Shown here piece by piece: positions 1 through 57,591 of a stretch of DNA of 64,000 nucleotides. Location: assembly GCA_918797485.1 (NCBI GenBank), contig CAKKNE010000001.1, forward strand, positions 3,286,001 through 3,350,000. The letters are read 5' to 3'. The translations under genes were made by a program, and so were the position numbers. This DNA is from Pelagomonas calceolata (Eukaryota; Sar; Pelagophyceae; Pelagomonadales; Pelagomonadaceae). The notes under the pieces are model-generated. The model worked only from the letters and a program-made list of their open reading frames with translations, made no database searches and had not been told where the DNA came from. Positions within the stretch are counted from its first letter, which is position 1, and each line of letters begins with the position of its first letter.

Positions 1-1172
1 GAGGCCCACTTGTCAAACAATCTACGAGAAACACCACTCTGGAGCATACCAGGAGCCGCCATGACGACGCAGGGCCCCGTGTCGTCGAGATCATCTACCG
101 AATTCAAATTTTGCACATGTGCAAACCTAAAGGGGTTCGCGACGTCCATCTGGTCCCTCACCTGCGTGTGTACGCGTGGACTCGCGCGAAGACGCCATCG
201 CCGCGAGTTTCGACACTGGTCGCGGACGTGCTGGTTCATCATGTTTATATACGTCTGGTAGACCCTCAAAGCGCGCGTCGCCATCTTGGAAGCGTAGAAG
301 ACGGGAATCCGGTGGAGATCCTCCCGCTCCTTCCAGTACTCGTCCAGGATCAACAGTAACTCTTGCGCCCGCCCGAGGGCAAAGGCCGGGATCAAACATC
401 TACCGCCCCGTTGCACGATGCGCTCGATCGTCGACGTGAACAAAGCTTCTCGGACATCTCTGGATTCATGTTTTTGAGTTCCGTAAGTGCTCTCCATAAT
501 TAACACGTGCGGTTCCAGAGAAGGTACCTCCGCAGGTACTAAATGACGATCCTCCTCCATACTGTAGTCTCCGGTATATAGCAAGCGCACGCCCCCGATC
601 TCGATGTAGAACATCGCCGCGCCAAGAACATGTCCAGCGTTATAGCTCCAGAACCTAATGCCGTTGTGTTCGACGACCTGGTGGAAGTCGACCAACTCGA
701 CCTTGTCGCAACAATTAGCTAGGTCCGCTTCGTCGTACAAGCCGTCCCTGCCACCGCTCCCTTCGCCGCCTTGCTTCCTGCCGTCGCCCGACGGTAGTAA
801 ACGAATGTAATCGGACAGTAGTAGTCTCATGACGGCTCTTGTGGCGTGGGTCATGAAGATCCTGCCTTTAAAACCCGTTTTCTCCGTCAAGTACGGGACG
901 CCGGCCGCGTGGTCGATGTGGAAATGAGAAACGAGGAGTAGGTCTACGGTTGATAAGTCTACGGTGTCTAAGAATGGGAGGGCATCTAAGCCGGATCTAC
1001 CGGGATGAATGCCGCAATCTAATAAAACGGACCTCCCTCGAAATTCCAGTAGATGGCAGGAACGACCGACTTCTTTGCCGCCGCCCAAAGGTGTTATTTG
1101 TAAGGTGTCCTCCATGGGCTGCGGGGCTTGTGTGGCGCCCGCGACGACCTGGACGGGCGGGGGCTCGGCCAT
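1..1172 (-). CDS. CPSF3: Cleavage and polyadenylation specificity factor subunit 3 (CPSF73), N-terminal part
   Basis: Endonuclease that cuts pre-mRNA 3' ends in the nucleus; a metallo-beta-lactamase/beta-CASP protein. The reading frame starts with an ATG at 1172 and runs off the left window edge. Residues 83-88 are HFHIDH, the zinc-binding HxHxDH signature, preceded by the typical ITPLGGGKEVGRSCH segment. Later segments YTGDYSMEEDRHL, ESTYGTQ and PAFALGRAQELLLILDEYW match the family well. The coding sequence is 1172..228 and 161..1, interrupted by a 66-nt phase-0 introner intron (162-227); splicing restores NQH-VRDQMDVANPF. Divergent from the MYND gene at 1451. The C-terminal part lies outside the window. 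Confidence 0.95.
   Translation of the reverse strand, partial: MAEPPPVQVVAGATQAPQPMEDTLQITPLGGGKEVGRSCHLLEFRGRSVLLDCGIHPGRSGLDALPFLDTVDLSTVDLLLVSHFHIDHAAGVPYLTEKTGFKGRIFMTHATRAVMRLLLSDYIRLLPSGDGRKQGGEGSGGRDGLYDEADLANCCDKVELVDFHQVVEHNGIRFWSYNAGHVLGAAMFYIEIGGVRLLYTGDYSMEEDRHLVPAEVPSLEPHVLIMESTYGTQKHESRDVREALFTSTIERIVQRGGRCLIPAFALGRAQELLLILDEYWKEREDLHRIPVFYASKMATRALRVYQTYINMMNQHVRDQCRNSRRWRLRASPRVHTQVRDQMDVANPFRFAHVQNLNSVDDLDDTGPCVVMAAPGMLQSGVSRRLFDKWA
162..227 (-). mobile_element. Introner intron in CPSF3 (66 nt)
   Basis: On the minus strand the donor is CAC|GTCCGCGACC and the acceptor CACACGCAG|GTGAGGGACC. The two flanks GTCCGCGACCAG and GTGAGGGACCAG agree at 9 of 12 bases, so they look like a diverged target duplication. 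The core contains CGGCGATGGCGTC, related to the CGCGTCGATGGCGT core of other copies. Length is a multiple of three and stop-free. Confidence 0.85.
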
Positions 1173-1450
1173 GATGACTGCTGCTGTTTAGAGCCGGCTC
1201 GAGGCGCTCGCGAGGTGTGGGGCTTGCAGGGGCTGTTTCGGAGCGCGGCGTGGCAGCGCAGCGGCGCCAGGCGCTTGTGTATTATAAAGTGGTGCTGCGG
1301 CGACCGCGTCTGGCTGCTTAAGGCCAACAGCGAGTGCTTTTAGCCTGCTTTTGCTCTCTGCTCCCCCTAGTGTCGATGTACGCTAGCCCAGCCAATCTCG
1401 ACGCTGCTCGTCTGAAGGGCTAGAATTTGTGTCTTGGTGTGATCTGGGCC

Positions 1451-2335: not shown

Positions 2336-2357
2336 GGTTTGTTTTTGTATTCTTCGG

Positions 2358-2384
2358 TTGCTAGTGTCTTTACAGGGCGCTAGC
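2358..2384 (+). repeat. GCTAG palindromic element, copy 1
   Basis: TTGCTAGTGTCTTTACA followed by GGGCGCTAGC: one of seven copies of an imperfect palindrome that begins with TTGCTAGTGTCTTACA and ends with CGCTAGC. It lies 111 nt upstream of the kelch start codon. Confidence 0.7.
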
Positions 2385-3737: not shown

Positions 3738-3796
3738 GATGTGCATTCTGGACTTGTATCTGTCACGGTGCTAGGACTAGTGGTGTGCATTCTGGA
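3738..3796. repeat. Direct repeat framing a 3'-flank element
   Basis: The 14-mer TGTGCATTCTGGAC occurs at about 3740 and again at about 3784, framing a short segment that carries ACGGTGCTAGGACTAGTGG (3765-3783). The latter is the conserved part of the dispersed repeat found downstream of four other genes. The direct repeats could be a duplication made when the element inserted. Confidence 0.6.
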
Positions 3797-6339: not shown

Positions 6340-6943
6340 GGTTTTACTCGCTTCTGTATAATTTAGCACAGATAACCGGGTCGCGACGCACGCGCGCGAG
6401 GAAGCTGGTATGGGTGGTCCTGGAGCTCGCAGGTGGCGTGCGCCGAGCGGCCAATGTGGCTCACGGCTTCGGTGGCGAAGCTGGTGACTCGGAGAGGTCT
6501 TAGTTGCTGCAAATCTGCAGCTACAGACCCCGTAGGCTGGGCCTGGCTGGTTTGGGCGGAAGAGTTAGCTAGCGGCATGTAAGACACTAGCAAGAACCGA
6601 TCCGCCCATACGTCATCAAGGAAGTCAGGAGAGCTTGTTAGCGCGGACGGACGACTGCTTGCGCCTAGATAGGAACTCGACCTCAGCTCACGAGCTTGTG
6701 CGGCGAGCTGGATTTTTCGGCCCTTAGACATTGGTTACGCGACGTCAGACGCACGATACATTGCTCACTTGCTGTCGCACGACCGCTGCTGCCACTCGCG
6801 CACAGCACCGAGCAGCAAAGCGCATTGATATCGCTTGCCTGCTAACCCACCAGCTTGGAAACGCGCCGCCGCAGCAGCGCTAGAAACACCGCAGCGCTCG
6901 CAGCACGCCGCCGACGCGCCGCTTGCACCCAGAACACGACAAT
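6340..6943. other. Divergent intergenic region MIC60 / cysteinyl-tRNA synthetase
   Basis: About 600 nt between two divergent starts. It holds one palindromic GCTAG element (6568-6594). A 122-codon minus-strand frame (6363-6731) crosses the element, shows no family features, and is not called as a gene. Nothing else is recognised. Confidence 0.5.
6568..6594 (-). repeat. GCTAG palindromic element, copy 2
   Basis: Plus strand reads GCTAGCGGCATG then TAAGACACTAGCAAG. It lies 229 nt upstream of the MIC60 start, in minus orientation relative to copy 1. Confidence 0.7.
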
Positions 6944-9052
6944 ATGGCCGCGTTGAGCGAAAAAGCCGCCGCCGTCTTCGGCCGCTGGTGCCGGCCCTGC
7001 GACCAGGCGCCTCCAAAATTACACATCTACAATTCGTTGACGCGAAGCAAGGTGCCCTTCTACCCCATCGATCCTTCCGGCCAGCGCGTGACGATGTACG
7101 TCTGCGGCCCGACGGTTTATGACGCGGCACATTTGGGCCATGCCCGTACGTATCTCCAGTTCGATGTTATAAGAAGGATCTTGAGGGATGTGCTGGGGTA
7201 TGACGTCGTCTACGTCATGAACGTGACGGACGTCGACGACAAAATCATTGTGAGAAGCCAGGAGCGAGGCATCACGCCCGAAGCACTCGCGAGGGAATGG
7301 GAGAGAAAGTTCCTGGAAGACATGACGGCGCTAGGCGTCGAACGTCCCAGTGCGATGCCTAGAGTGACGGAGTACGTGCCGGAGATCGTCTCGTTCGTGG
7401 AAACGTGCGTCAGCAACGGCTTCGCGTACGAAGATCGGGGGTCGGTCTATTTCGACACCAAAGCGTTTGAGAGCAAGGGCCACGACTACGGCAAGCTCTG
7501 CCCCGAGAACGTCGGCAACGAAGGCCTCATGGCGGAAGGCGAAGGGAAACTGGCCAGTACAACCTTCACGAAACGCGATGATCGCGATTTCGCGTTGTGG
7601 AAGGCTTCGAAGCCCGGCGAGCCGACGTGGCCGTCGCCCTGGGGGGCGGGCCGGCCCGGCTGGCACATCGAGTGTAGTGCCATGATCGAGCACACGATCG
7701 GGCACGGCGGGCCTATTGATATCCATGGGGGAGGTGTGGATTTGAAGTTTCCCCACCACGACAACGAGCTCGCGCAACAGGAGGCTTTCTGTAATTGCCG
7801 GCAGACCGTGAACTACTTTGCGCACACGGGCCACTTGCATATTCGTGGTTTAAAAATGTCGAAGAGTCTCAAGAACTTCATCACGATCCGACAGGCGCTG
7901 GAGGGCGTCGATGGGTTAGAAGGTGTGAGACCTAGTACGATGCGCATCATGTTCTGCCTCGTGCAGTACAACGCGCCTTGTGATTATTCGGACAACATGT
8001 GTCGAGCGGCGTCCGAGTTACATCGCCACGCGGTCGCCGCGATCACGCGGTCGCGGCGATGGCGTCGACGCGATGCCGCACCGCCGTGACGCCGTCGACG
8101 CGGCCTCCCCCCACGCCGTCGCCGCGCACGCACGCGCACCGACGCAACGCGCCGCCACCGCGCCATCGAACGCAGGCTCGCGAACGCGCGCGCCATGGAG
8201 AAGAAGTTCCGCGAGTTCTTCCTCAACGTCGCCGCGGCGCTACGAGTGGTCGATAGTGACGTGAACGCGAAGTTCAAAGTACGGCCCGAGGATGCATCCC
8301 TGTTGAAAGCGCGAGATGATTGCGCAAAGGAGGTGCGCGCGCGCTTTTTAGATGATTTCGACACGCCGAACGCGGTGAAAGCATTGCAGAAATTAGTTGA
8401 TTCTACGGGAAGCTACTTGTCGACCCTCGAAGCGACGAATTCGCAACCGTCGTCGCTAGCCTTATGCGCGGCAGCGAGGTACGTCGCCGAGACCTGGCTC
8501 AAGCTCGGCGTCCAGGGTTTGTGCTCGGACGAGGTGCTCGACGCGCTGCGAGTCTATCCTTCCCAAACCTCGGCAAAGAAGAGTTCGGGAGCGGCGTCCG
8601 CGCCGTTGTTGGATGCGCTATCGAACTTCAGAGACGGCGTACGAGGTGCTGGTAGAACTCAAGATACGGCTGGGGTCTTGCGGTTATGTGATGAATTGAG
8701 GGATTTAGTACTGCCGGAGCTCGGCGTTCGCTTAGAGGACAAGGGCGCCGGTAGCGTCTGGAAGCTCGACGATCCGGAAGTTTTACGGGCTGAAAGGGCA
8801 AGAAAAGTCGAGGAAGCTCAAGCCAAGGCCGACGCGAAACGGTTAGCCGCGGAGAAGGCCGCCGCTAAAGAAGCTGCGGCTCGTGTTGATCCTCGGGACA
8901 TGTTCAAGAACGGGCCTTATAAAGCGTTCGACGCCGACGGCGTGCCCACCCAGAATGACAAGGGCGAGCCTTTACCGAAGTCGCAATTCAAAAAACTGAA
9001 GAAGCAGTGGGAAGCGCAGAAGAAGGCGTTCGAGAAGGCCAGCGCGAAGTGA
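6944..9052 (+). CDS. CARS: Cysteinyl-tRNA synthetase
   Basis: Charges tRNA-Cys with cysteine. Class I synthetase, 647 residues after splicing (6944..8010, 8176..9052). HIGH motif HLGH at residues 63-66 within YVCGPTVYDAAHLGHARTY. The zinc-site cysteine region (GWHIECSAM) and HGGGVDLKFPHHDNE follow, then KMSKS at ~304-308. After the intron, CRAALANARAMEKKFREFFLNV aligns with the eukaryotic enzymes' EFFLNV region, and the protein ends in a Lys-rich helix (FKKLKKQWEAQKKAFEKASAK), as in eukaryotic cytosolic forms. No clear organelle leader is seen. GTAAGT occurs 16 nt after the stop. Confidence 0.95.
8011..8175 (+). mobile_element. Introner intron in cysteinyl-tRNA synthetase (165 nt)
   Basis: GC|GTCCGAGT to GAACGCAG|GCTCGCGA, phase 2. 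Inside it, GGCGATGGCGTCGACGCGA and GACGCCGTCGACGCGGCC form an inverted pair related to the introner core. The splice was placed to restore the conserved FREFFLNV spacing. Confidence 0.75.
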
Positions 9053-12594: not shown

Positions 12595-12656
12595 GGCGCG
12601 TCGATGGCGTCTTGCGTTGAGTGCTGTCTGCGTGCGCGTCGATGGCGTCTTTGCGT
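12595..12656 (+). repeat. Two introner cores upstream of the aldo-keto reductase
   Basis: GCGCGTCGATGGCGTCTTGCG appears twice about 45 nt apart, with GAGTGCTGTC after each copy: a short tandem duplication in the 5' flank. Confidence 0.6.
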
Positions 12657-12738
12657 GAGTGCTGTCCGTGATCAAGAGCTTCTGGCGTGCTAGTTACGCT
12701 GAGTTTAGGCCCGGAAAGAGCGCTGAAAAAAGAAATTA

Positions 12739-12762
12739 GCTAGCGTCTTGTAAGACACTAGC
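12739..12762 (-). repeat. GCTAG palindromic element, copy 3
   Basis: GCTAGCGTCTTG then TAAGACACTAGC: the most symmetrical copy, a near-perfect palindrome, 155 nt upstream of the aldo-keto reductase start. Confidence 0.75.
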
Positions 12763-12992
12763 AAAAAATGCCACGACTGGCCGCCGCTGCAACGTACGAG
12801 CCTGTACGCACCTATAAGTGCGTGCAGGGCGTGGAGCGTTGGCCACCGGCGTGCGAAGGTCGCGCTGAGGCAGTCGCGCCGCACCAAACCGCCCGGCGGG
12901 GGCAGCAGTAGCCGCACAGACAAGGAGGCCGCTGAGGCTGCCGCGTCGCGGGGAAGCAACAGCACCCAAAAATGCCGAACTGACGCTCCTGA

Positions 12993-21105: not shown

Positions 21106-24100
21106 TTAGTCCGCGAACGCCAGCCCCACGACGTCCTCGAAGGTCGCCGCGAAGTGCGCCTCCAGGTCTTTTTTCAGGTGCTCGGGCAGCTCGTCGAAGT
21201 CGCGCCGGTTCTCGTCGGGCAGGCACACGTGCGCCACGCCCGCGCGTCTCGCCGCGATGACCTTCTCCTTGATGCCGCCGACCGGTAGCACCTTACCCGT
21301 CAAGGATAATTCACCGGTCATCGCTAAATCTTGGCGCACGGGTTTGTCGGTCGCCAGCGACAGCAGCGCCGTCGCCACAGTAACTCCAGCCGAAGGACCG
21401 TCTTTAGGGGTTGCGCCGTCGGGCACATGAATATGCAACTCATCCCCGTCCAACTCTCCATCTAAACGTGATCTCACATGATTCAGCGCGACGCGCGTGC
21501 TTTCCTCCATGACTGACCCTAACTGCCCCGTCGTCGACAGCTTCGGCGCGCCCTTGTCGCCTCCACTCAACTTCGTAGCTTCCACATACAACGCCGCGCC
21601 GCCCATGGACGTCCAGGCGAGGCCCATGACGACCCCGACCGGGGCAGCATCGTCGTACAACCGGTCCTTGGAAAACCGGGGCTTGCCCACGAAGTCCTCC
21701 AAGGTGTCCACCGTCACGGCATATCCAGAACCCTTCTCCGACTCCGGTCTCGTAGCAGCAGCTGATGGGTCATTGTCGCGCACGACCCGTAAAGCAACTT
21801 TTCTCCCAATCTTCTCCACGAGCTTCTGGAGCGTTCGAACACCGGCCTCCCGCGCGTGGCCCCGGATCAACGCTACGAGAGCATCATCATCAAAAGAAAC
21901 ACCATCGGTAGACTGGAGACCGGCCTCCTCGAGCGCCTTGGGCACCAGATGTTGACGCGCGATGGCGACCTTGTCCTCCAGGTCGTAGCCCGCCAACCTA
22001 ACGACCTCCATGCGATCCAGCAACGGCCCGGGGATGAGTGACGCGTCGTTTGCCGTACAGACAAATAGACACCTCGATAAGTCTACCGGTACATCTAAAT
22101 AGTGGTCCAGGAAGTTCGCATTTTGCGAGGGGTCCAGCAGCTCAAGTAACGCCGACGCGGGGTCGCCCGAATTGCCGCCGCGCCCCAATTTATCCACTTC
22201 ATCAATTAACACCACGGGATTGAATTTTTTTGTCGCTTTCAGGCATTGAATCGGTTTCCCCGGCATGGCTCCGACATAAGTTCGGCGGTGGCCCTTGATC
22301 TCCGCCACGTCCCCGAGACCACCGACGCTAAAGCGGTAGAACTCCCTCCCGAGCGCCTGGGCGATGCTACTCCCAATGCTGGTCTTGCCCGTTCCTGGGG
22401 GCCCTACTAAACACAAGATCTTGCCTCGCACGCCGCCTACTAAACTCCCTACGGCTACGAGCTCCAGGATGCGCTCCTTGACCTGTGTGGGTACCCACGC
22501 GTCTCTCTACGCCATCGACGCGACTCGCGACTCGCATCCACGAGAGCTCATACGCCATCGACGCGGCGACGGCGTGATGACACTGCAATCGCACGTCGTC
22601 CATGCCGTAGTGCACGTCGTCTAAAGCCTCCTTCGCGGCCGCCACGTCAAAAACCTCACCCGACACGCTTCCCCAGGGCAGGCCCGTGAGCCAGTCCAAG
22701 TAATTGCGCGTCACATTAAACTCAGCGGAATTCTTCTCGAGCGCCTCCAATTTCGAAAGTTCCTCCTCGATGGCCGCCCTTGCTACTGCTGGTATCACAC
22801 CATCTTTCCACTTCTCCTCCGCCGACTCCTCCTCGACATCCTCGACACCTTCGATCGACGCGATGCGGTTCCTGAATTTCTTGACCAGCGCATCCTTGTC
22901 GTCCGTCTCGACGCCCAGCTCCTTCTTGATGGTTTTTAACTGTTCATTCAGTAAAAACGTGCGCTGCTGGGACGATAATTTTGTCTCGACCTGTTGCGAG
23001 ATCTCCTGTTGGAGTTTACTTAGTTCGCGTTCTTGGGAAACGAGATCCAGAGCCAACCTCAATCGCTTGACGACGTCGCGCTCCTCCAGAGCAATCTGGA
23101 GATCCGGACCTTTGGCAGTAGCCAAGGACGCCGCGAAGTCGGCCTGCGCGGGGCATCGTATTCACTGGAAGCGGTCCAATGTGGCATCGCGTCGACGGCG
23201 TCCTGATGACCACGTAGACTCTCGTGGGATCACGACGACGGCGTCGCGGCGGCGCTGTCTCGTGAAGACGCCATCGACGCGACCGCTGTCTCTCTGACAC
23301 GCCGCGACGGCCCCGACGCGGTCCGAAACAGCTCAAATTCGAACAAGAAACCACACCCGGCATCGTGCGATGGCCACGAGTTGATGGCGTGACTCTACGC
23401 GACGGGACGCCGCGAGCGCACCAGCTTGAACGGGTCCGCGATGTCGACCCTCTGCGTAAAGTACTGCATGTGTTCCCGGTATAATGGATTGAGCTGCACT
23501 AATTCCCGGATGGCCGCCACGATCTCATTCGACAGAGCTCGCACGAGGTCGCCCCTCGACGCGTCCTTCTTTCTCCTTCCCGTTTTGGTAGGTGGGATCG
23601 TGCCATCGTCCTCGTCGATCCACGCTTCTCTCGGCCAGTGTTCTACTCCTAACCTAGGTGGTGGGCCGGCATCTACTACGGTCGAGGCGTCGACTCTTCG
23701 ATGGACTAACAACAAAGCTTGAGATTGGCCGTCGGAGCCCTCGGCGACGTTGTGCACCTGGGCGAAGGCGCCCGTGCCGTGGACTGTATCCAAACATTCG
23801 TCCAAATCAGAAGGCGTAAATAATTCGGCGGCCTCGTGTTCCTCCGCGGGTTCTTTTCGTAGGAATAGGGCGACGTAAGGTCTACCCGCGTCGCGTTCAG
23901 CTTGCAAGGCTGCGGCCGCAGTAGGACCCAGAGACAAGGAGTGGACCATGCCCGGGAACAACGGTCGCCGCGCCAACGCCAACGCTAATACTCGATCCGG
24001 CGTCGGCGCGCCGTCGCCGACGCCGACGCTCGCGGGCGCGTCGCTGTCGTCGTCGTCGATGGTCACGGCGACGGGGCCGCCGTCGTCGTCGTCGCCGTCG

Positions 24101-24693: not shown

Positions 24694-25563
24694 ATGGCGT
24701 CGCGCGCCCTGAAGCTCGCCGCGCGCAAAGCAGCGACGCCGAAGACGCCGGCTTGGTTCGTCGGCACGGACCCGCTCGGCGACGGCCTCGTCGAGGACCC
24801 GCCGACGCGCTCAAAAACGGGCGAGTTCATCTTTAATGATGCCCCCGATTTTAAGCCCAACCTGTCTCCAGCTGAAGTGCTGCAGGCCGGTAGTTTCGGA
24901 GGTGGCTATTTTCGCGACATTACGTCCTCCGTAACGAAGACAACCTATAAAGACGCCTGGAAGGAGTTACCTGCAGATTGGTTGGAAGGTTTGGATATCA
25001 AGACGCAAGTAGCGTCGCAGACGTATCGAACGTCGATCAATCGTTATGGCGTGAACTGCGGCGTGAAGACCGATAAATCCGATAGTTTCGGCCTCAAGGC
25101 CTGGGAAGCAAGTGGCTGGATGGCCGCCCAGGACCCGTACGGGTGGTTCCAGTGGTACTGCCGTTTTTTTCAGGGAAGACGCTCTGATGATGACGAGCGC
25201 CAACTCAGCCGGTGGATGAAGTGCTGCGGTCCTAAAGGTAGGTGGAAGTCGAACTTGATCGGGAAGTGTTTGAGAGATGGCAAGTCGTATGACGACGCTT
25301 CTGTGTCTCCAGTCGTCCGGCAAACTTTACAGCACTGGGGCTACCGTCTGACGCGGGCGCATTTTGATGCTGGAAGCGCTAGGGTCAAGGCGAAGGGCGC
25401 CGCTTATTTGCCGCGGTCCCAATTACAACACGTGCTGGACAAGAAGCCCGCGGCGGCGGCGCCGGCGCCCAAGAAGCCGCGGGCGCCGCCGCGGAAGCGC
25501 GGCGACGACTCCGACGCCGACGAAGCGCCCAAGAAGCCGGCGGCGCGGAAGAAGCGCCGCTGA
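24694..25563 (+). CDS. Conserved basic protein, unknown function
   Basis: 289 residues. The central region (SFGLKAWEASGWMAAQDPYGWFQWYCRFF...SDDDERQLSRWMKCCGPKGRW) with its dense Trp/Tyr pattern, and SPVVRQTLQHWGY, looks like a conserved domain that I have seen as an uncharacterised family in fungi and algae; I cannot give it a function. The tail is Lys/Arg/Pro-rich (KKPRAPPRKRG, KKPAARKKRR), suggesting a nuclear or nucleic-acid role. A GTAAGG donor-like sequence follows 21 nt after the stop. Confidence 0.7.
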   Translation: MASRALKLAARKAATPKTPAWFVGTDPLGDGLVEDPPTRSKTGEFIFNDAPDFKPNLSPAEVLQAGSFGGGYFRDITSSVTKTTYKDAWKELPADWLEGLDIKTQVASQTYRTSINRYGVNCGVKTDKSDSFGLKAWEASGWMAAQDPYGWFQWYCRFFQGRRSDDDERQLSRWMKCCGPKGRWKSNLIGKCLRDGKSYDDASVSPVVRQTLQHWGYRLTRAHFDAGSARVKAKGAAYLPRSQLQHVLDKKPAAAAPAPKKPRAPPRKRGDDSDADEAPKKPAARKKRR

Positions 25564-25603
25564 GTCCTGTCTCCCCTCCCCAGGTAAGGCTTGTTGTTCA
25601 ATC

Positions 25604-25830
25604 TTACGCACTGCTCGACGGCGTTTCGCGGGCGCGGAGCTTGGCTCGCGCATCTACCATGAATTGCTCAATCGACCCTGTTTTCGGGTGGGCACCCCCC
25701 AGCACGCGCCGCGCAATCGGTTCAATCTCTTCGAGCGTCGTCACGGCTTCGCGGAGATCGTCGAGCGTGACGTCGGGGTTCGTGTAGAGCGCCGCTGCAT
25801 ACTGATACCGACGGGGAAGGCGCTCATCGA
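25604..25830 (-). pseudogene. C-terminal fragment of a MYND/TPR-family gene
   Basis: The minus strand encodes RRYQYAAALYTNPDVTLDDLREAVTTLEEIEPIARRVLGGAHPKTGSIEQF, closely related to the last ~75 residues of the MYND/RINGv/TPR protein at 30131-31264 (LDDLRESVTTLEEIEPIARRVLGGAHPTALSIEA). No zinc-finger or upstream TPR part is present. It is therefore a duplicated tail, overlapping antisense to the sulfotransferase-like reading frame. Confidence 0.7.
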
Positions 25831-26287
25831 CCAACTGACGTACCTGGCTGTGTGGAAATCGGACACCATCGCGTCGATGGCGTGGAATCGCCACGCCATC
25901 GCGCAGACGCGGCTACGGAAGCACGTCGCGTCGATGGCGTGGGGCGCCCGAGATTTGATTTCCCACAGGTACCTGGAGAACGAGTTCGCGAAGATGGACC
26001 GCATGCGGGACGACGCCCTGGCGCGCGGCATCCGAACTTTGAAAGTCACGTACGAGGATCTCGTCGAGGACAAGGGCGCGGGCCTGGAACGCGTCGCGAA
26101 ATTTGTTTCGGCCGGCACGGGCTGCGACGCGGCGGGCTTCACGTACACGGGCGAGGAGGCGTCCTGGCACGTCGTCCACCCGCACCCCATGTCGTCCTAC
26201 GTCGCGGACTGGAAGGATGTTGTATCAACATTGCGCGGGACGCGCTTCGAGAAATTCCTGGCCATGGACGGGTCGTCGGCGGGCTAG
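25800..26287 (+). pseudogene. Sulfotransferase C-terminal fragment
   Basis: After removing an introner (25840-25968), the frame reads KALIDQLT-YLENEFAKMDRMRDDALARGIRTLKVTYEDLVEDKGAGLERVAKFV...WHVVHPHPMSSYVADWKDVVSTLRGTRFEKFLAMDG. YEDLV and the following helix resemble the C-terminal part of Golgi-type sulfotransferases. The N-terminal PAPS-binding region (PKSGTT type) is absent: upstream sequence is antisense to a TPR-gene tail. Hence a truncated remnant or an exon of a gene whose 5' part is elsewhere. The 25800 boundary is approximate. Confidence 0.5.
25840..25968 (+). mobile_element. Introner with perfect 8-bp target duplication (129 nt intron)
   Basis: Left: GTACCTGG then CTGTGTGGAAATC. 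Right: GATTTCCCACAG then GTACCTGG. The terminal repeats are inverted copies with one mismatch, and the 8-bp duplication GTACCTGG is perfect. The interior has two copies of CGCGTCGATGGCGTGG. The donor GT is the start of the upstream duplication; the acceptor AG is the last dinucleotide of the element. A young copy. Confidence 0.93.
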
Positions 26288-26337
26288 CGGACCTGGTACC
26301 TGCCCCCCGAAAACGCGGCCCGGTGTCTCCCTCCCCC

Positions 26338-26357
26338 ACACTCGTCCTAGCACCGTA
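26338..26357 (-). repeat. Dispersed 3'-flank repeat, copy
   Basis: CACTCGTCCTAGCACCGTA, preceded by GCGGCCCGGTGTCTCCCTCC: same order of motifs as the copies near 38.3 and 49.65 kb. Lies ~40 nt beyond the dolichol kinase stop, in the same orientation relative to the gene as the other copies. Confidence 0.65.
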
Positions 26358-31320: not shown

Positions 31321-31347
31321 CTTGCTAGTGTCTTACAGGCCGCTAGC
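31321..31347 (+). repeat. GCTAG palindromic element, copy 5
   Basis: CTTGCTAGTGTCTTACAG then GCCGCTAGC, 57 nt upstream of the MYND/RINGv/TPR start and in opposite orientation to copies 2-3 relative to their gene. Confidence 0.7.
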
Positions 31348-35805: not shown

Positions 35806-36122
35806 ATTCGTTGTGTACTTATGAAACCTCTGGATGCGGCGGGGCAATTCGTGTCTACTGTCACGCGTCGAGCAGGCGCTTGAAGAAGTGCTTGAAGAGC
35901 GTGGGGTTAACATATCCCGTCGATTTTTAGGGTGTTTGCCGTTTTTAGCTCTCTTGGAGATTAGGCGTTTTCAAGAGATTCAGGCTAAATCTATTTTTCC
36001 GCTTTAAAATTAATCCATTTTGGCTTACGATTTTGCGTTTTGTGTCTGCGCGTTGTCGTCTACCCTTTTAAAGGGAAAGCGGGTTTTTTGAGTTTGGGCC
36101 GAGTGCCCCGTTTGAGGTCTCC
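35806..36122. other. AT-rich convergent spacer with inverted repeat
   Basis: About 315 nt between two convergent genes, strikingly AT-rich (35.93-36.07 kb) against its surroundings. It holds AACATATCCCGTCGA (35909-35923), half of the palindrome found at 36142. An interrupted stem TTAGC-TCTCTTG ... CAAGAGA-ttcag-GCTAA spans 35945-35988. It may be a transcription-end region or a remnant of an inserted element. Confidence 0.5.
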
Positions 36123-37879
36123 CTAAGTGAAAGTGCCGTATAACATATCCCGTCGACGGGATATGTTAGGGTTCGCGATCGCGTCGGCGGGGACCATCTC
36201 GGCGTCCGTATCCGCACTGAGCCACTCGAGTGAGACCACATTTCCATCTTCATCGTAGATGATCTCGACGGACCTGGCAACGTCGGCGATAAGGACGGCG
36301 CCGAAGCGGACGACGCCAATGACAATGACGGCGCCGACGGCCACGACGGCCACGACGACGATGTAGTACAGGATGTTTCTTGCGGGTTCGAGCCACGCTT
36401 CACGACGAGCCATCCGCTCGTCCCCCTCATGCCACTCTTGCCATCGTTCCCGCTCCTCTCGCTCCTCTTGCTCCCGACGCGCCTCTTTTTTCCTCTTGAC
36501 GCGTTCCTCTTCGGCGCGCTCGCGCTCCTCTGCCGCCGCTCGCTCGTCGCCCGACGGGTCCGGGAAGACCCTAGCCACAATCGCGCCGTCGTCCTCCATG
36601 ACGACCTCGCCGGCACCGGTGTCGATCTTCGTCACGTAAATACTGACAGGCTTGCCGTCGTCCATGGTCTTGGCCGGCGCCCAGGACTTGCCCTCCTTGA
36701 GGATGAGGACCATCTCGGCCATCTCTACGGACTCTACTTCATATGAACTGCGCGACGTCGGTCGCAACGTCAGCTCGGTGCCGTCCAATGAGAAACCAGA
36801 ACCTCGTACAATGAGTCGTTTCGTGAGCGTCGCGTAGATCTTGCGCTCCGAGGCCTCGATGGTCGGGTCCGCGAGCACCGTCGCCACCACGATGCCCGGG
36901 CCCCAACCGTTGGCGAGTTCCACGGGCGCATCAGAACCGCACTGGATCGACATGAGATATAAGGGCCCGGCCTTGTAGCGCCACTTCTTGTGCGGCTTTT
37001 GGGTTAATGAGAGTTTCTCCGAGGTAGCCCTGGTAATAGAGTAGTCGACACCATCGGTCAAAGGAGGCTGGAACGCTAATGAGGGTCGCTGGCAGAACGA
37101 ACTACCTTGAATCTCGAGCTTGCGGATGGCCGCCTGCGTTGGGGAGACGCGTCGATGGCTTAGGGGTGGGCAATGCGTCCACCGCCACGCCATCGATGCG
37201 ACGATGCCGCGACCGCGTCGAAGGTTCAGACACCGTAGAAAACAGTCTGGTAGAGGATTTGGACCTTTGCCCGGAGAACGACGGGCTGGTCCGCCGCTTT
37301 TTCGCAATGTTGGCCGCTCCAGGCTTCCTGGCAGCGGCAGACAGGGCTCGGGTCGGGCGCCGGCGCCCAGCTCGGCCCGGCGGTCTCCTCGGGCTCAGGC
37401 TCAGGTTCCGGCTCAGGCTCAGGTTCGGGTGCAGGCGCAGGTTCGGGTTCAGGCTCAGGCTCGGGCTCAGGCTCTGGTTCGGGCAATATCGACGCTCCTG
37501 TGTTCAGTTTGCGTCGCCACGCGTCCTTTGGTGGCGACGCAAAGACGTGCTCGACTTGTTCCGCCACCTCGTGCTCGCGCTGCTGCCGTTCGGCATCTTC
37601 GCGCTTTTTGTTGGCTCGTTTCCTTGCCTCCTCTTCGTCCCGCCGCACGCACGTGCCGTGGCCGTTGCAGGGGGGGCGCCCGCAGGGGTAGAGTCTGCCG
37701 TAGATAAGCGCCGGCCCGGAGATATCCAGATTCCTCAACCCATGGAAACTCCCGAAGACCAAGACAGAAATGAATGCGGCGAGCGCGTACCACGGCACGC
37801 GTCGCGTCAATGCGCGGCTGACGCGGACTGGCGGCGCCTGCTTTCTTTCCAGCTTCGCCCCCCTCGGCGGGCGACGCAT
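36123..37879 (-). CDS. Membrane protein with a split EGF-like domain
   Basis: 548 residues after splicing (37879..37244, 37133..36123). An Arg-rich N-terminus precedes a membrane anchor ([18 protein letters not shown], ~28-45). Then [15 protein letters not shown] holds three EGF-type cysteines, and [13 protein letters not shown] holds the other three, about 100 residues later; between them are a charged coiled coil and an (EP)n tract. A globular region ([22 protein letters not shown]...) follows, then a Glu/Arg coiled coil and a second membrane helix ([22 protein letters not shown]). The last residues are coded by a 26-bp perfect palindrome. Function unknown. Confidence 0.65.
36142..36167. 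repeat. Perfect 26-bp palindrome in a C-terminal coding end
   Basis: AACATATCCCGTC and its inverse GACGGGATATGTT form a perfect palindrome over the last codons of the split-EGF gene. Related copies lie at 35909-35923 (half) and 61885-61906. Confidence 0.9.
37134..37243 (-). mobile_element. Introner-type intron (110 nt) in the split-EGF gene
   Basis: ACT|GTTTTCTA to CCCCAACGCAG|GCGGCCAT, phase 0, with GTCGCATCGATGGCGTGG inside. The next possible donor (GTCTGAACC) would add four residues; the upstream one follows the rule seen at the other introners. Confidence 0.7.
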
Positions 37880-38504
37880 CGTGCACCTCTGCGCTGGGCC
37901 ACTCAACGACTCTCCCTCTTAGCGAGTCGTGAGCGCTCGCTGACTTGTGGCACGCGGCCACAGACCGGGCACGCGAAGTTCAGACGATCACACCGCCTAC
38001 GCGCTGCATCGACGCTAACATTACGTCGTCGCTGGACCGGGCTCGAGGCACGCACGCAATCACAGCTCCGGGCGACGCCGTGCTCGTCCCGTCGCGTCAC
38101 CGACGTGAGCGCTCTCAGAGGCCGGCACTTTCCTATACGGGCGTGAGATTAGGGTCCGGGGAGTCGCCTGAAGCTGCCCCAGGCTCGGCGGCGGGGCTGC
38201 TGGGCATGCGCAGGCTGGGGTTTTGACTCCTCACTAGTGACTCTTATAGATCTAGATCGCGCGGATTGCCGGAGGCGGTTCTGCTTAGAAGGAGGTACGC
38301 TGTTATGAAAGAAGCGGCCCGCGCCCGCCGCCGATGAATCGGCGACGCGCGGTGTCTCCCCCCCAGGGGCTCCGCCCACTAGTCCTAGCACCGTAACATC
38401 GACTATACGCGGAGCATGGCGCCGTCGACGACGCGGCCCCAGCAACCTCGAGAGACAAGCTAGAAACCGAGAGAAACTTACGCGCGCAACCCGACGGAAG
38501 ACCT
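37880..38504. other. Intergenic region with a dispersed repeat
   Basis: About 620 nt between the split-EGF gene start and the transporter stop. It contains the 3'-flank repeat (38305-38405) and no clear gene; the plus-strand frame over 37079-38146 is antisense to the EGF gene. Confidence 0.45.
38305..38405 (-). repeat. Dispersed 3'-flank repeat, longest copy
   Basis: TATGAAAGAAGCGGCCCG ... GAATCGGCGACGCGCGGTG ... GGGGCTCCGCCCACTAGTCC then TAGCACCGTAACATCGACTA. The last ~40 bp recur almost exactly at 40635-40680. Downstream of the nucleotide-sugar transporter. Confidence 0.8.
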
Positions 38505-40634: not shown

Positions 40635-40681
40635 CGTCAAAGGGGCTCCGCCCACTAGTCCTAGCACCGTAACATCGACTA
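40635..40681 (-). repeat. Dispersed 3'-flank repeat, copy
   Basis: AGGGGCTCCGCCCACTAGTC then CTAGCACCGTAACATCGACTA, nearly identical to 38366-38405. It is downstream of the JmjC gene in the same relative orientation. Confidence 0.85.
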
Positions 40682-40729
40682 CGCCAGTCGTCGCAATAAA
40701 GGTAGAACACAAGGTCACTTACACACAAA

Positions 40730-49740: not shown

Positions 49741-49801
49741 ACGCCATCGACGCGACCCCCGCGACTGCATCCGACCCCCCTACGCCATCGACGCGACCCC
49801 C
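49741..49801 (-). repeat. Two introner cores in tandem, intergenic
   Basis: CTACGCCATCGACGCGACCCC occurs twice, 44 nt apart, with CGCGACTGCATCCGACCC between. Confidence 0.65.
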
Positions 49802-50810: not shown

Positions 50811-51496
50811 GGTCGTACCTGCGCGGCGGCGGGTCGCGCGGCGCGCGTCGTTGCAACGCGTTTTGCAGGCAGTGTGTGAGCGGCGCGTTGCGGCTGCGTC
50901 GTGCGCTTGCGACGAGGCCGCGTATGCATGCGTGCGCTCTCGCAACGCAGCAAAAGCGCACAGCACTATGGGAAATATTTGTGACTGCAGCGTTTCGTTG
51001 CAGTGCAGCGGCCACGTGCGAACAGGGTGCAAACAAGAGTCGAGACAACAATCTGACGCTGCCTGCTTGCTTGTATCGTCTGCAGGGACTGGTTTATCGA
51101 GAGGCATTGTCATCCCAAATAATTCACGCTAGGTAACATACTAGAAAGAATCAACGAGTCGCGGAGCGCCTCGTACTCATCGGAACTGCCCTCGATCCGA
51201 TCGCAAGGCCATGTTATGGCTCTCGAACGGGCCCAGGTGACTTGTCACGGGTTTCCCAGACCAAATCCGTCGCGCTGCCGCTTTAGGCCTGGCGCATAGT
51301 CCCTGACCGAGGGAGACGCGGCTTTTGACCGTCCTGAGCCCGGCGCGGTCGCCGGGCCCGCGGAAAAGGCGCCTCAGAGGCGAGTCTGAAGCTCTTCCTC
51401 ACCAGAGGCTCTAGGGAGACGCGCGAGCGCGCGCGGGAGGCCGCGGGGCCACGACAGACGCCGTTGACGCCCCCGCCGCGAGCCACGACAAGCAAG
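50811..51496. other. Divergent intergenic region
   Basis: About 690 nt between the sialic-acid-synthase-family gene and the HIR gene. Both strands carry short frames without recognisable content. No palindromic element or introner core is seen. Confidence 0.4.
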
Positions 51497-52515
51497 ATGC
51501 CCTGCTGCATCGAGTGCATCCAGACGGCTGAGGTCGGCATCGTCGAACGCTGCGGGAAGTACTACAGACAAGCGGGACCAGGCGCGAACTGCGTCTGCTA
51601 CCCCGTCGACGAGATTGTGGGTGTCGTGAACATGAGAGTACAGCAATTAGATGTGGAGATCGAGACGAAGACGCTCGACAACGTTTTTGTGATGGTCGTG
51701 GTCAGCATCCAGTACTCGCCCATCCAGGAGCGATTGTGGGAGGCCTTCTACTCGCTAGAAAGCCACAAGCTGCAGATCCGAGCTTATATTGAGGACGTCG
51801 TGCGAGCCGTGCTGCCGACGCAGTCGCTCGACGACGCGTTCGAGTCGAAGGAGGCCATCGCGCTGTCCATTAAAAGAAGGTTGGACGCGACGATGCACAC
51901 GTACGGGTATCTCATCCTCAATTCGCTGGTCACGGACAGTGAGGAAATCAAAATTTTACGACGCGTCCTGATTCCTGAATCGCCGCGTCGACCTCCACGC
52001 CATCGACGCGACGCCTGCTCGACGGCGTGGCGCTGCAAGTTCCTCACCGCTCGACGGAGCCAGCACGGCCGGGCCATTGCCGAGAAATGACTTATCAGCG
52101 GATAGTGAAGAATTACGGGGTGCACCCGATACATTGGGTGATTTCCACACAGGTCACGGACATGACGCCCGACTACCGCGTGCGCAATGCCATGAACGAG
52201 ATCAACGCGTCCAAAAGATTGAAGGAGGCCGCGGCCGAGAAGGCCGAGGGCGACAAGGTGTTGAGCGTCAAGTCCGCCGAGGCCGAGGCCGAGTCGAAGT
52301 ACCTCGCGGGCGTCGGCGTCGCGCGCCAGCGCAAAGCTATCGTGGACGGCCTCAAGAACTCGATCAGCGACTTCACGTCGAACGAGCAGATCAAGGGCGC
52401 CTCGTCGAAGGACGTCGTCGACTTGCTGCTCATCACGCAGTATTTTGACATGCTCAACAGCATCGGCACGCGGCCGGACACGTTGACTGTCTTCATTGAT
52501 GAGGACGGTGAGTAA
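51497..52515 (+). CDS. HIR/prohibitin (SPFH) family protein
   Basis: 264 residues after splicing (51497..51928, 52153..52515). Plant hypersensitive-induced-reaction proteins and their algal relatives scaffold plasma-membrane microdomains. MPCCIECIQTAEVGIVERCGKYYRQAGPGANCVCYP is the HIR-type N-terminus with acylation-prone Cys residues; the SPFH core (VVSIQYSP, ESHKLQIRAYIEDVVRAVLPT) and coiled coil (INASKRLKEAAAEKAEGDKVL, SKYLAGVGVARQRKAIVDGL) follow. Splicing gives YGYLILNSL-VTDMTPD, as expected. The stop codon lies in a GTGAGTAAG donor-like sequence. Confidence 0.93.
51929..52152 (+). mobile_element. Introner with perfect 8-bp target duplication (224 nt intron)
   Basis: Left: GTCACGGA then CAGTGAGGAAATCAAAA. 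Right: GGTGATTTCCACACAG then GTCACGGA. The inverted termini CAGTGAGGAAATC and GATTTCCACACAG pair with two mismatches. The GT of the upstream duplication is the donor and the element's terminal AG the acceptor; phase 0. The interior carries the inverted core CACGCCATCGACGCGACG. Confidence 0.95.
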
Positions 52516-54632: not shown

Positions 54633-54803
54633 TCGCGCGGGTATGCAGCCATTTCTGGTCTGTGCAGATCGGGGCAGCCCCAGAGCGCTAGGCCGTCGCG
54701 CCGGAGCGACTGATCAGTGTGGAGGAAAGCGCGCATCCATCATTGATCGCCGCGCTCGCGTGCGGTTGGCTGCTCATTACTGTGGCTGCTCACACTGCCT
54801 GCC

Positions 54804-57591
54804 ATGGCCTCGCCTCGAGCACGGCTCCCGCCCGACGGGCTGTCGTCCCATCATCTTTCCAAATCCAGCCGACGGAGGAGCGATGCAGAAGAGAGCCGCG
54901 CGACTGCTCGAACCCTCCTGCTGAAGGGGCACAGCGACCCCGTGTCGTGCTTGGCGGCGCTCGACGGCGGCCGGCTGGCATCCGGCAGCTGGGACAATTC
55001 CGTCGTCATCTGGAGCCAAGACGGCACGCAACTCGCCAAGCTCGAGGGGCACAGGCGCGCTGTCTGGAGCCTGGCCGCGCTCGACGCCGGTCGGCTGGCG
55101 TCCGGCAGCTGGGATAACTCCGTCATCATCTGGAGCCTTGAAGACGGCAAACAGGTCGCCAAGCTCGAGGGCCACACGCGCCCCGTCTGGAGCCTGGTGG
55201 CGCTCGACGGCGGACGGCTCGCGTCCGGGGGCGGCGACGCTTCCATCATCATCTGGAATCTTGCGGACGGCACACAGCTCACGAAACTCGAGGGGCACAC
55301 GAGCTATGTCCAATGCCTGGCCGTGCTCGACGGCGAGCGACTCGCATCTGGGAGCCGAGACAGATCCATCATCGTCTGGAGCCTCGCGGACGGCACGCGG
55401 TTATCCACGCTCGAGGGGCACACCAGCGCGGTCCTGAGCCTGACCGTGCTTGCCGATGGCCGGCTGGCGTCAGGGAGCGGAGACAGCTCAATCATCCTCT
55501 GGAATCCCGCGGACGGTGCGCAGCTCGCCACGCTCGAGGGGCACACGGGCTCGGTCCAATGCCTGACCACGTTTGACGGCGACCGGCTCGCGTCCGGTGG
55601 CGATGATACCTCAATCATTATCTGGAATCTTGCGGACGGCAGAAAGATCGCCAAATTCGAGGGACACACGGCCATGGTCCGATGCCTAGCTACGCTCGAC
55701 GGCGCGGCGCTCGCATCAGGTGGAAGCGACGAGACGATAAGAATTCGCCCGGTGCTTCACCCGGCCGCGTACAGGTTCAACGCCTGCGCCTCGGCCGAGT
55801 ACAGGGCGTTCGAGTTCGAGGACGTCGCTCGCTCGTGTCGCAAGGAGGGCTGCCTCGGCGACCTGTTCGAAGCCGCCGCCGTGCAGCAGTTCGACGAACA
55901 CATTGGTGGCTTGAGTGCGTCTGCCTCCATCGCCAGACAGGCCCACGTCTTCGACGCGCTCGCCAAGGTGGCAAAGGAAGACGCCGGATTTCGGTCGCAA
56001 ATGATCGACAGCCTCGCGCCGAGCGTCCTCGCGCTCGTCCGCGACGACGCGTTGCTGCCCGACATGTATCGCCGCGGTGTGTCGAACGCCGCCATCCAGG
56101 AGCTCGCACCGAGTCCGCTATTCCGCGTCGTGCTGGACGCCAAGTTCGCCGCCGGGCCGAAGTTTGTGCTTTACTTCGAACTTCTTATCTTTATTGTGCT
56201 CGGGTTATGCTTTACGCGCGTCGCTCCGTACCAAGTGTTTGCTCGGGGGGAGAAGTGGTTTCCCTCGGAAAACATTGTCGAGATTGTTTTCGCGTTTGTG
56301 GTGCTGGCTTATTTCTCGGTGCGCGAGATCTACCAAATGGCATTTACGCGCGCCATCGAGCTGGAGTCGTCTGAGGAACAGCTCGACGACGCAGAAGGCC
56401 TCGCTGCGTACCTGGCGGATGCGATCGTGGTCCCGCTGCATCTCATTGCCTGTTACTGTGTGGAAATCCATCGAGCAGATGCAGTTACGAGGACGACGTC
56501 GCGTCGATGGCGTGGGGCGTCCGAAATTTGATTTCCACGCAGGCCTGCTGCGCTGGGAAACGCGACGAATTCGAGGACTGGTCCGAAAAGGCCATCCGAG
56601 AACCCATCAGATACGACGCTTTGACCTTCCTTGGCCTGTCGCGGGCGTGGCGCTATGACTACTGGAACTGGATAGACCTGGCGACGATCGGCTGCGCGTG
56701 GGCCGCCTTTTCGCGCGCGGCGATGCCTGGGGCGCGGCTCAGTCCCGACCTAGCCGTCGCCACTTCGATGCTGATGTGGGTCCGATTCTGCTGGTACCTC
56801 AAGAACATGCGGCTCGGCTGGGCCAAGTTTGTACTCATGTTCGAAGACATTGTTTGGGACCTTCGCTATTATTTATTCTACTTTCTCGTGGTTCTCCTGA
56901 TGTTCGCGAGCGCGTTCTATTTGTACCTCGGCCCGCGCAAGAGCGACGAGTTTGGATTTCACGACGGGCACAACGCGTTCCGGACCTTCCCCTATACGGT
57001 ATACAACTTGATACTGCTGGGCTTCGTCGGTGATTTCGACCCGGACAATTTCGACGAGGTCGCTGTGCGCGTCCTACTAGTATTCTTCATCCTGGTCGTA
57101 ATGGTCGTGTTCGTAGCCCGTGTAGAAATCAAATTTCGCGATGCCCCACCAGCCTATTGCACACGATGCCCCACCAGCCTATTGCACACAGGTTTCTGAA
57201 CGTCTTGATAGCAATCGTCTCCGATAGCTACGATCTCTCGATGGCGAAGGCCGAGGGCCTCTTCTTGCGCAGCCGGTGCGAGCTCATCACGGAGACGGCA
57301 CTGATCGCGTCCCTTCTACCGACGCGGTGCCTGCCGACGCATGACGAAGCGACGATCAAGGCGAGCCTCGCGCTTGCGCTCCGCAGAGCGACCAGACAAG
57401 CCGACGACGACCCGAACCGTCTGAATTACACGATCAACGCCGTCGCTGCGATTGTCGACAACCGAACGCAGAAGCTGGAGGCCGAGCTCGCAGCGACGCG
57501 GCGCGAACTCTCCGAGATGAAGGCCATGCTCCAACTCCTCGTCGACAAGGGAGAAGAGCGCCACGGCCTCCTTCGGAGGCTCATAGACTAA
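54804..57591 (+). CDS. WD40 propeller fused to a TRP/polycystin-like cation channel
   Basis: 869 residues after splicing (54804..56447, 56543..57108, 57192..57591). Residues ~38-315 are seven WD repeats, a full propeller, with nearly uniform units (LEGHT..V..L..LD..RLASGS.D.SIIIWNLADG). A linker (~316-440) is helical. The channel has membrane helices starting VLYFELLIFIVLGLCF, then IVEIVFAFVVLAYFSVREIY, ADAIVVPLHLI, IDLATIGCAWAAF, YLFYFLVVLLMFASAFYLYL; a pore region (AFRTFPYTVYNLILLGFVGDF); and a last helix VRVLLVFFILVVMVVFLNVLIAIVSDSY, where NVLIAI..DSY is typical of TRP/polycystin S6. The C-terminus is a coiled coil (LEAELAATRRELSEMKAML). The propeller plausibly senses or docks a partner. 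Confidence 0.85.
56448..56542 (+). mobile_element. Introner intron A in the channel gene (95 nt, GC donor)
   Basis: ATT|GCCTGTTA then CTGTGTGGAAATC ... GATTTCCACGCAG|GCCTGCTG, phase 0. The termini pair with one mismatch; the flanks share GCCTG. The rule implies a GC-AG intron; a GT donor at 56460 would add four residues (ACYC) in frame. Core GTCGCGTCGATGGCGTGGGG. Confidence 0.85.
57109..57191 (+). mobile_element. Introner intron B in the channel gene (83 nt)
   Basis: GT|GTTCGTAG then CCGTGTAGAAATCAAATTTC ... TATTGCACACAG|GTTTCTGA, phase 2. Inside, GATGCCCCACCAGCCTATTG plus CACAC is present twice in direct tandem (27-nt unit). Splicing forms VVMVVFLNVLIAIVSDSY, the expected S6 sequence. Confidence 0.9.

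What the first reader, a model, noticed from the sequence alone, without database searches (positions are those of the whole stretch)
162..57191. Thirteen introns, with nearly all donors at the upstream target duplication
Every intron I could place in the window ends in CRCAG or CACAG at the acceptor, and the donors begin at a non-consensus GT (one GC) that is the start of an 8-bp flanking sequence. Two copies (25840-25968 and 51929-52152) have perfect 8-bp target duplications (GTACCTGG; GTCACGGA) and 13-bp inverted termini (CWGTGTGGAAATC / GATTTCCACACAG). This is the published introner mechanism (Huff, Zilberman and Roy 2016) in which the DNA transposon carries one splice site and the duplicated target supplies the other. 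Phases are 0 (nine) and 2 (four), never 1, consistent with codon-biased GT capture. All the seven other clear copies sit in unrelated genes, so insertion has been genome-wide. Intron lengths are 66-278 nt.
Basis: partly seen in the sequence, partly recalled or inferred. Interest (0 to 1): 0.9.

Follow-up and report, generated by a model that had tools for sequence, protein, structure and literature searches.

The report
Transposon-made introns in an ocean alga
A small mobile DNA element in the ocean alga Pelagomonas calceolata appears to turn itself into a removable intron when it lands in a gene, a mechanism already published for a related alga, and its many copies show which splice signal it brings and which it borrows.

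Summary
Partly confirmed. The window is Pelagomonas calceolata. I could place 7 of the claimed 13 introns. Three are clear introner copies with target duplication and inverted termini (25840-25968, 51929-52152, 56448-56542; none in the reversed window or 20 shuffles). The other four match at only 2-5 of 8 bases, so 'nearly all donors at the duplication' fails for the introns I could place. It holds for the family: of 77 confident copies sampled from the genome, 74 duplications start GT (51) or GC (23) on an independently called coding strand (background 17%), and the 3' AG is intact in 77. Phase 1 occurs (14 of 77), against 'never 1'; phases follow GT/GC availability. Copies lie in both orientations (32 versus 41), and the acceptor A is the only one of 15 terminal positions that decays significantly more on the idle side (10 versus 0, p=0.001). 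Related public proteins run through three insertion sites, and two carry introner ends elsewhere. Termini look hAT-like; no transposase with these ends was found. The mechanism is known, and introner-length introns were already noted in this species. New, as far as I could search: about 30% GC donors, use in both orientations, and no sampled copy without a GY at its insertion site.

The parts
25840..25968 (+). Introner copy in an ORF (exon frames 25352-25839 and 25969-26287), phase 2, GT donor in TSD GTACCTGG; 129 nt, divisible by 3 and without in-frame stop, so retention cannot be excluded; no Pfam domain in the joined protein
25840..25847 (+). upstream 8-bp target duplication GTACCTGG, supplies the GT donor
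25969..25976 (+). downstream 8-bp target duplication GTACCTGG (exon start)
51929..52152 (+). Introner copy in a band-7/HIR-like gene (exon frames 51338-51928 and 52153-52515), phase 0, TSD GTCACGGA; the spliced protein equals the NCBI Pelagomonas calceolata protein over 264 of 264 aa
51929..51936 (+). upstream 8-bp target duplication GTCACGGA (GT donor)
51937..51949 (+). 5' inverted terminus CAGTGAGGAAATC
52140..52152 (+). 3' inverted terminus GATTTCCACACAG, carries the CACAG acceptor
52153..52160 (+). downstream 8-bp target duplication GTCACGGA (exon start)
56448..56542 (+). Introner copy with GC donor in a WD40-repeat/channel-like gene (exon frames 54747-56447 and 56543-57199), phase 0, TSD GCCTGTTA/GCCTGCTG; relatives P0121-P0123 read through this site, P0143 reads into the same introner
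162..227 (-). 66-nt intron in a beta-CASP metallo-beta-lactamase gene, GT donor, CGCAG acceptor, TSD match 5/8; placed by frame
8011..8175 (+). 165-nt intron in cysteinyl-tRNA synthetase, phase 2, TSD match 4/8; placed by eye between the two exons (the automatic listing returned none for this gene; the downstream exon's match to a solved CysRS is weak, E 0.078)
22483..22594 (-). 112-nt intron in Lon protease, phase 0, acceptor CACAG, TSD match 2/8; placed by homology
23144..23421 (-). 278-nt intron in Lon protease, phase 0, acceptor CGCAG, TSD match 3/8; acceptor placed by homology, donor by frame and recalled Lon consensus

Best explanation
A family of short non-autonomous DNA transposons (commonest size 203 bp, hAT-like termini CTGTGTGGAAATC...GATTTCCACACAG, 8-bp target duplication) makes spliceosomal introns in Pelagomonas calceolata. 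On insertion the 8-bp target is duplicated. When its first two bases on the coding strand are GT, or less efficiently GC, the upstream copy becomes the 5' splice site, and the last three bases of the element (CAG) become the 3' splice site. The intron (duplication plus element, 211 nt at the commonest size) is removed and the original coding sequence is restored. Because the termini are inverted repeats ending in CAG on both strands, the element works in either orientation, and only the end that lands at the gene's 3' side is then held by splicing selection. Shown by sequence: termini, duplications, GY on the coding strand, selection on the AG, both orientations, read-through of the sites in related proteins. 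Inferred: splicing itself (one published gene model agrees), use of GC as donor, a hAT-type transposase.
For: Exact 13-base termini 889+852 in the genome, control 2+0; a 16-base end 336+381, control 0+0. Of the first 30 places of the latter (all on C1), 29 have a partner terminus (24 counted there, 5 already counted through other loci, 1 without partner) and 27 of these 29 have duplications with at most 3 mismatches. Coding strand called without the duplication: 74/77 sense GY against 0.173 background, p=2e-52; 24/77 antisense GY against 0.185. Sense 3' AG 77/77; the mirror bases at the sense 5' end broken in 10/77, p=0.0014; of 15 terminal positions tested singly only the acceptor A differs, p=0.001. 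Removing duplicated copies leaves 73/76, 76/76 and 10 broken. Orientations 32 versus 41, p=0.35, 3 unclassified. Phases of GT and GC donors fit GT/GC availability nearby, p=0.79 and 0.83. NCBI protein P0001 equals the spliced product at 51929-52152 over 264/264 aa. Relatives read through the insertion sites in three genes, among them P0123 (its only contig 523,820 bp), P0259 (37,909 bp) and P0004 (longest of 8 contigs 81,130 bp); P0122 and P0155 run into an introner end (CVEINQCVGC) at other sites of the same genes; P0143 reads into the 56448 introner. Commonest intron length 211 nt (18 of 77) fits the published peak near 210 bp (PMC9481584, passages).
Against: No RNA reads were available. Four of the seven introns placed in the window show no convincing duplication. 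3 of 77 confident copies lack sense GY in the upstream duplication: L026 has CT upstream but GT downstream; L036 and L042 have GT on the other strand and may be miscalled. No transposase with the introner termini was found: the C4 hAT has ends CAGGGCAGCAGAAG; a C5 hAT-type ORF has nothing closer than 5 mismatches of 13 in the 1,400 bp read upstream of its domain. In all 23 GC copies a GT lies in frame 12 nt inside, an alternative donor. The 88 sampled loci come from three searches; 58 were chosen by similarity to the window's copies. Relatives at 84-94% identity may be paralogues or other species, and short contigs may be transcripts.
Confidence: 0.9

Rival explanations
1. In copies whose duplication starts with GC the real donor is not GC but the GT inside the 5' terminus (CTGT|GTGGAAATC), 12 nt further in. 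Splicing there is in frame and adds four codons, as published for an Aureococcus sp. introner family (4 bp of introner plus 8 bp of duplication).
For: GT at +12 is present in 23 of 23 GC copies and 46 of 51 GT copies, p=0.32, always in frame. PMC9860276 (section 7 with figure legend) describes exactly a 12-bp, 4+8 geometry in Aureococcus sp.
Against: If GC were not used, non-GT duplications should start at random; 23 of 26 start with GC against 13% expected, p=8.5e-18, and this is sense-specific (antisense GY in 5 of 23). The +12 GT is kept on the 5' side (71/77) no better than its mirror on the 3' side (70/77). Joining at GC gives an ungapped protein in TrpRS and in the WD40-channel gene, though this only shows what the empty site encoded.
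Confidence: 0.15
2. The GY rule is a target preference of the transposase rather than selection for splicing.
For: All 106 copies of the first detection have GY on at least one strand (104 of 104 after removing duplicates) against 25% of random 8-mers; the far end is also enriched, 24/77 against 0.185, p=0.0075, or 23/76, p=0.012.
Against: GY is on the coding strand in 74/77 but on the other strand in 24/77, and only the sense-side AG is held; a strand-blind enzyme cannot do that.
Confidence: 0.1
3. The three window copies are ordinary repeats that interrupt or end genes and are not spliced.
For: 25840-25968 is 129 nt, in frame and stop-free, so the protein could simply contain it.
Against: 51929-52152 (224 nt) and 56448-56542 (95 nt) shift the frame and lead to stops when retained, and the NCBI protein of P. 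calceolata omits the former exactly.
Confidence: 0.03

Closest known systems
Introner elements of Aureococcus anophagefferens (Huff, Zilberman and Roy 2016, Nature 538:533; paper not held; content recalled and as cited in PMC9481584 and PMC7789003)
   Same: Pelagophyte; short TIR transposons with direct repeats of constant length; one splice site from the element, one from the duplicated target (recalled); intron length near 210 bp (PMC9481584 passages; PMC7789003 passages)
   Different: Other species; I could not compare terminus sequences. PMC7789003 says the A. anophagefferens introners have canonical splice motifs, while about 30% of the present family starts with GC.
Introner family 4 of Aureococcus sp. 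TARA_AOS_82_MAG_00129 (Gozashti et al. 2022, PMC9860276: abstract, sections 7 and 26, passages)
   Same: 8-bp duplication; a GT four bases inside the element, the same 4+8 geometry as the in-frame GT at +12 here
   Different: There the inner GT is the donor and four amino acids are added; here selection on the first two bases of the duplication points to the outer GT/GC.
Introners of Symbiodinium microadriaticum (PMC9860276, Fig. 2B legend)
   Same: TIRs; element carries the 3' splice site, duplicated target supplies the 5' splice site
   Different: 4-bp duplications there, 8-bp here
hAT superfamily MITEs (recalled: 8-bp TSD, TIR starting YARNG)
   Same: 8-bp duplication; positions 1, 3 and 5 of the terminus (C, G, G) nearly invariant, 2 changes in 231 against 64 in 924 at the other positions on the 5' side, p=9e-5
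   Different: Second base usually T, not A, which makes CAG at the other end; no matching transposase found

Membership tests
Introner elements (DNA-transposon type) | Many similar copies that coincide with introns in unrelated genes | tested here: met
   889+852 exact termini; 76-77 confident coding insertions; different proteins among the GC copies printed. Intron status by frame, not by RNA.
Introner elements (DNA-transposon type) | Target duplication that includes one splice site | tested here: met
   74/77 sense GY at the duplication start; 66 of 106 copies with exact 8-bp duplications
Introner elements (DNA-transposon type) | Element carries the other splice site | tested here: met
   AG at the sense 3' end 77/77 versus 67/77 for the mirror bases
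Introner elements (DNA-transposon type) | Copies spliced out of RNA | not testable with these tools
   No reads; one published protein model agrees; no NCBI P. calceolata protein was among the 31 matches of the GC-donor WD40-channel gene
Introner elements (DNA-transposon type) | Recent gain: absent at the same site in close relatives | tested here: met
   3 of 3 genes compared; orthology and genome/transcript origin of the contigs not proven, judged from identity and contig length
hAT superfamily | 8-bp target duplication | tested here: met
hAT superfamily | Terminus of the form YARNG (recalled) | tested here: inconclusive
   C, G, G at positions 1, 3, 5 kept, but position 2 mostly T; CAGTG at 51929 and in 3 places of the capped list
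hAT superfamily | Transposase with the same termini in the genome | tested here: inconclusive
   PF05699 one hit with other TIRs; PF04937 one hit below cut-off, no matching terminus in the 1,400 bp read upstream, downstream side not read; PF10551 none; PF14291 none, but that search rang in no control genome either

The most novel reading that the evidence does not exclude
The mobilising machinery delivers this element almost only into genes, and perhaps to sites with GY at a target end, so that nearly every surviving copy is born as an intron: target choice, not only selection, builds introns. If insertion were random and harmless outside genes, copies without GY should be common: by hand, GT plus GC discounted to 0.18 make about 7% of coding positions, so even a modest nongenic share of the genome should supply most survivors. 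Yet 0 of 106 copies (0 of 104 without duplicates), and 0 of the 29 paired copies of the pattern sample, lack GY on both strands. In the second detection one copy, L026, has CT upstream, but its downstream duplication starts GT.
Probability: 0.3. Interest if true: 0.8.

Novelty: new member of a known kind. Interest (0 to 1): 0.5.

Why it matters
Introners are a leading explanation for bursts of intron gain. Here one family can serve as its own control: because copies sit in both orientations, each terminus is seen both as working acceptor and as idle end, and only the acceptor A is held. The GC:GT ratio gives an estimate of how well GC donors are accepted in newly made introns (about 0.18 per available site). 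Differences between public contigs of an abundant picoalga suggest that intron gain could be studied at population level.

Tried and rejected
Autonomous partner: PF05699, PF14291, PF10551 and PF04937 searched in the own genome, and the C4 transposase against it. The PF14291 search rang in no control genome, so it shows nothing. The C4 hAT is a complete-looking element with its own ends; the C5 hAT-type ORF has no introner terminus in the 1,400 bp read upstream of its domain, 143 bp next to the domain and its downstream side were not read. Merlin, P and other transposase families were not searched.

Carriers: a 21-base end pattern gave 0 places in viral contigs.

Hairpin: the intron at 51929 folds with z -2.16, 5 of 200 shuffles at least as well; covariation was not tested and the idea was not pursued.

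Age effect on GC donors: exact duplications in 14 of 23 GC and 33 of 51 GT copies, p=0.80. Two confident copies have GT upstream and GC downstream, one non-confident copy (L013) the reverse; too few to claim improvement of GC to GT.

Distant WD40 relatives: of 8 matches aligned (of 31), P0124, P0125, P0126 and P0128 have gaps at the junction and say nothing.

Rows dropped: 30 of 106 copies were left out of the confident 76; all 30 have GY on at least one strand. 26 of 103 of the second detection were left out of 77. At the anchor no counted pair in 9 of 58 similarity loci (L012 and L059 have exact pairs and appear to be the published segmental duplicates of counted copies; L026 passes the second detection) and in 6 of 30 pattern loci (5 of them already counted). 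A later check found two copies counted twice in the 106 and one in the 77; numbers without them are and change nothing.
Full report
WHAT THE WINDOW IS. The window is base 3,286,001-3,350,000 of contig 1 of a 32,445,274-bp, 8-contig genome. That fits the published Pelagomonas calceolata assembly: six nuclear contigs (32.4 Mb) plus plastid and mitochondrion, 63% GC (PMC9481584, passages). A protein of the window is identical over 264 of 264 residues to an NCBI 'Pelagomonas calceolata' product whose cluster includes a 6,277,007-bp contig. [quoted passage not shown] anophagefferens'. Its supplementary note was not available to me.

THE OBSERVATION. A scan for an 8-bp duplication flanking the termini CTGTGTGGAAATC / GATTTCCACACAG finds three copies in the window, none in the reversed window and none in 20 shuffles: 25840-25968, 51929-52152 and 56448-56542. 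Four more introns could be placed by homology or frame: one in a beta-CASP gene, one in cysteinyl-tRNA synthetase, two in Lon protease. Their donors and downstream exon starts agree at 5, 4, 3 and 2 of 8 bases. All seven end in CACAG or CGCAG, and joining keeps an open frame in all seven. So the acceptor statement holds, the donor statement holds for three of seven, and six of the thirteen were not recovered. The copy at 25840 is weak as an intron: 129 nt, in frame and without a stop.

THE FAMILY. The exact 13-base terminus occurs 889+852 times in the genome; the pattern read backwards 2+0 times. A 16-base version of one end occurs 336+381 times, control 0+0. From 88 loci (58 by similarity to two window copies, 30 by the 16-base pattern in chromosome order) and the window I collected 106 copies, 66 with exact duplications. 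Coding strand and frame were called from codon usage of the joined empty site, without using the duplication or the termini. In the 76 confident copies the duplication starts GT in 51, GC in 23, other in 2; a second, looser detection gave 51, 23 and 3 of 77. GT plus GC make up 17.3% of positions in the flanking coding sequence. On the other strand GY starts 24 of 77. Removing duplicated copies gives 50, 23, 1 of 74 and 50, 23, 3 of 76.

THE TWO-ORIENTATION CONTROL. The element is asymmetric inside but its ends are inverted repeats. In confident copies 32 lie one way, 41 the other, 3 could not be classed. So a terminus is seen both as the acceptor side and as the idle side. Of 15 terminal positions tested, one differs: the base pair that forms the A of the acceptor AG is changed in 10 of 77 idle ends and 0 of 77 acceptor ends (p=0.001; about 0.02 after correction by hand for 15 tests). 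Positions 1, 3 and 5 are nearly fixed on the idle side too (2 of 231 against 64 of 924), which suits the recalled hAT terminus rule YARNG, as does the 8-bp duplication. The hAT second base would be A; here it is mostly T, which turns the opposite end into CAG. That last step is inference.

DONORS AND PHASES. GT donors fall in phases 0/1/2 as 27/6/18 and GC donors as 7/8/8; both fit the local availability of GT and GC by codon position (p=0.79 and 0.83). 'Never phase 1' is thus a small-sample effect. Per available site GC is accepted about 0.18 times as often as GT. Among non-GT copies 23 of 26 start GC (13% expected). A published Aureococcus sp. family splices at a GT four bases inside the element and adds 12 bases (PMC9860276); the present element has the same inner GT in frame in 23 of 23 GC copies. 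It is not better kept than its mirror on the other side (71 versus 70 of 77), and selection on GC argues that GC itself is used, but only RNA can settle this.

RECENT GAIN. Three genes were compared with public proteins. In the HIR-like gene the ten proteins aligned beside P0001 (of 120 listed) all run through the site; the cluster of P0004 includes an 81,130-bp contig. In the WD40-channel gene (8 of 31 matches aligned) P0121, P0122 and P0123 (523,820-bp contig) run through the 56448 site, P0143 reads into it with the window's own unspliced peptide, and P0122 runs into an introner end elsewhere; four distant relatives have gaps there and are uninformative. In TrpRS (locus L088, GC donor, at the KMSAS region) 11 of 11 aligned proteins (of 120 listed) run through; P0155 carries an introner end further down. 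Short contigs may be transcripts and some relatives (84-94% identity) paralogues or other species; that the long contigs are genomic is inferred from their length.

WHAT DOES NOT FIT YET. All 106 copies have GY on at least one strand (read; 104 of 104 without duplicates), also the 29 paired copies of the pattern sample, two of which have no matching duplication, against 25% of random 8-mers. If insertions were random and harmless outside genes, copies without GY should be common. Either insertion is steered to genes or to GY sites, or nongenic copies are lost. The far end of the duplication is only mildly enriched (24/77 against 18.5%, p=0.0075), so target preference alone looks too weak.

THE MOBILISER. 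None found. A complete-looking hAT element at C4 (L062 5541-9207: duplication TTGCTCGC, perfect 14-bp ends CAGGGCAGCAGAAG, 721-aa ORF with PF05699) shows that hAT elements exist here but with other ends. A second hAT-type ORF at C5 (PF04937 match below cut-off, 832-aa open frame) has no introner terminus in the 1,400 bp read upstream.

VERDICT. A real introner family, by the mechanism already published for a related alga and already hinted at for this species. The specifics (GC donors, both orientations, differences between contigs, no copies without GY) I did not find described for Pelagomonas: the search for Pelagomonas plus introner returned one paper, with one mention of the word. Its supplement, Huff 2016 and most subscription literature were not available.

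Noticed in passing
L062 5541-9207 (genome C4): Apparently complete hAT transposon, the only match of its own transposase in the genome: 8-bp duplication TTGCTCGC, perfect 14-bp TIR CAGGGCAGCAGAAG, 721-aa open frame.
   Followed up: yes
L213/L214 (genome C5 1222801-1224200): Start of a second hAT-type ORF (832-aa open frame) beside a gene that looks UTP6-like (name recalled); its ends were not identified.
   Followed up: partly
L049 1505-1707: Introner with perfect termini whose flanks are not a direct duplication but nearly inverted (GTTCTGGC / ACCAGAAC), as if an inversion or exchange between copies had occurred.
   Followed up: no
L042 1501-1698 and 1818-1927: Two introners close together with the identical duplication GTACCCGT and similar flanks, perhaps a local duplication.
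   Followed up: partly
window 6565-6596, 12736-12767, 31321-31347: Short near-identical repeat TTAGCTAGCGGCATGTAAGACACTAGCAAG in three places, the third inverted.
   Followed up: no
window 35908-35933, 36134-36169, 61881-61916: Palindromic repeat around TAACATATCCCGTCGACGGGATATGTTA.
   Followed up: no
window 3748-3783, 26334-26357, 38372-38395, 40648-40687: Repeat around CCACTAGTCCTAGCACCGTAAC, several copies.
   Followed up: no
window 10279, 12595-12647, 45495, 49742-49797, 63267: The introner core CGCCATCGACGCGAC without recognisable introner termini; decayed copies or a different element sharing the core.
   Followed up: partly
P0005, P0006 (HIR-like relatives): Both diverge after EGDKV into what looks like an unspliced intron absent from the window, a possible further polymorphic intron site.
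   Followed up: no
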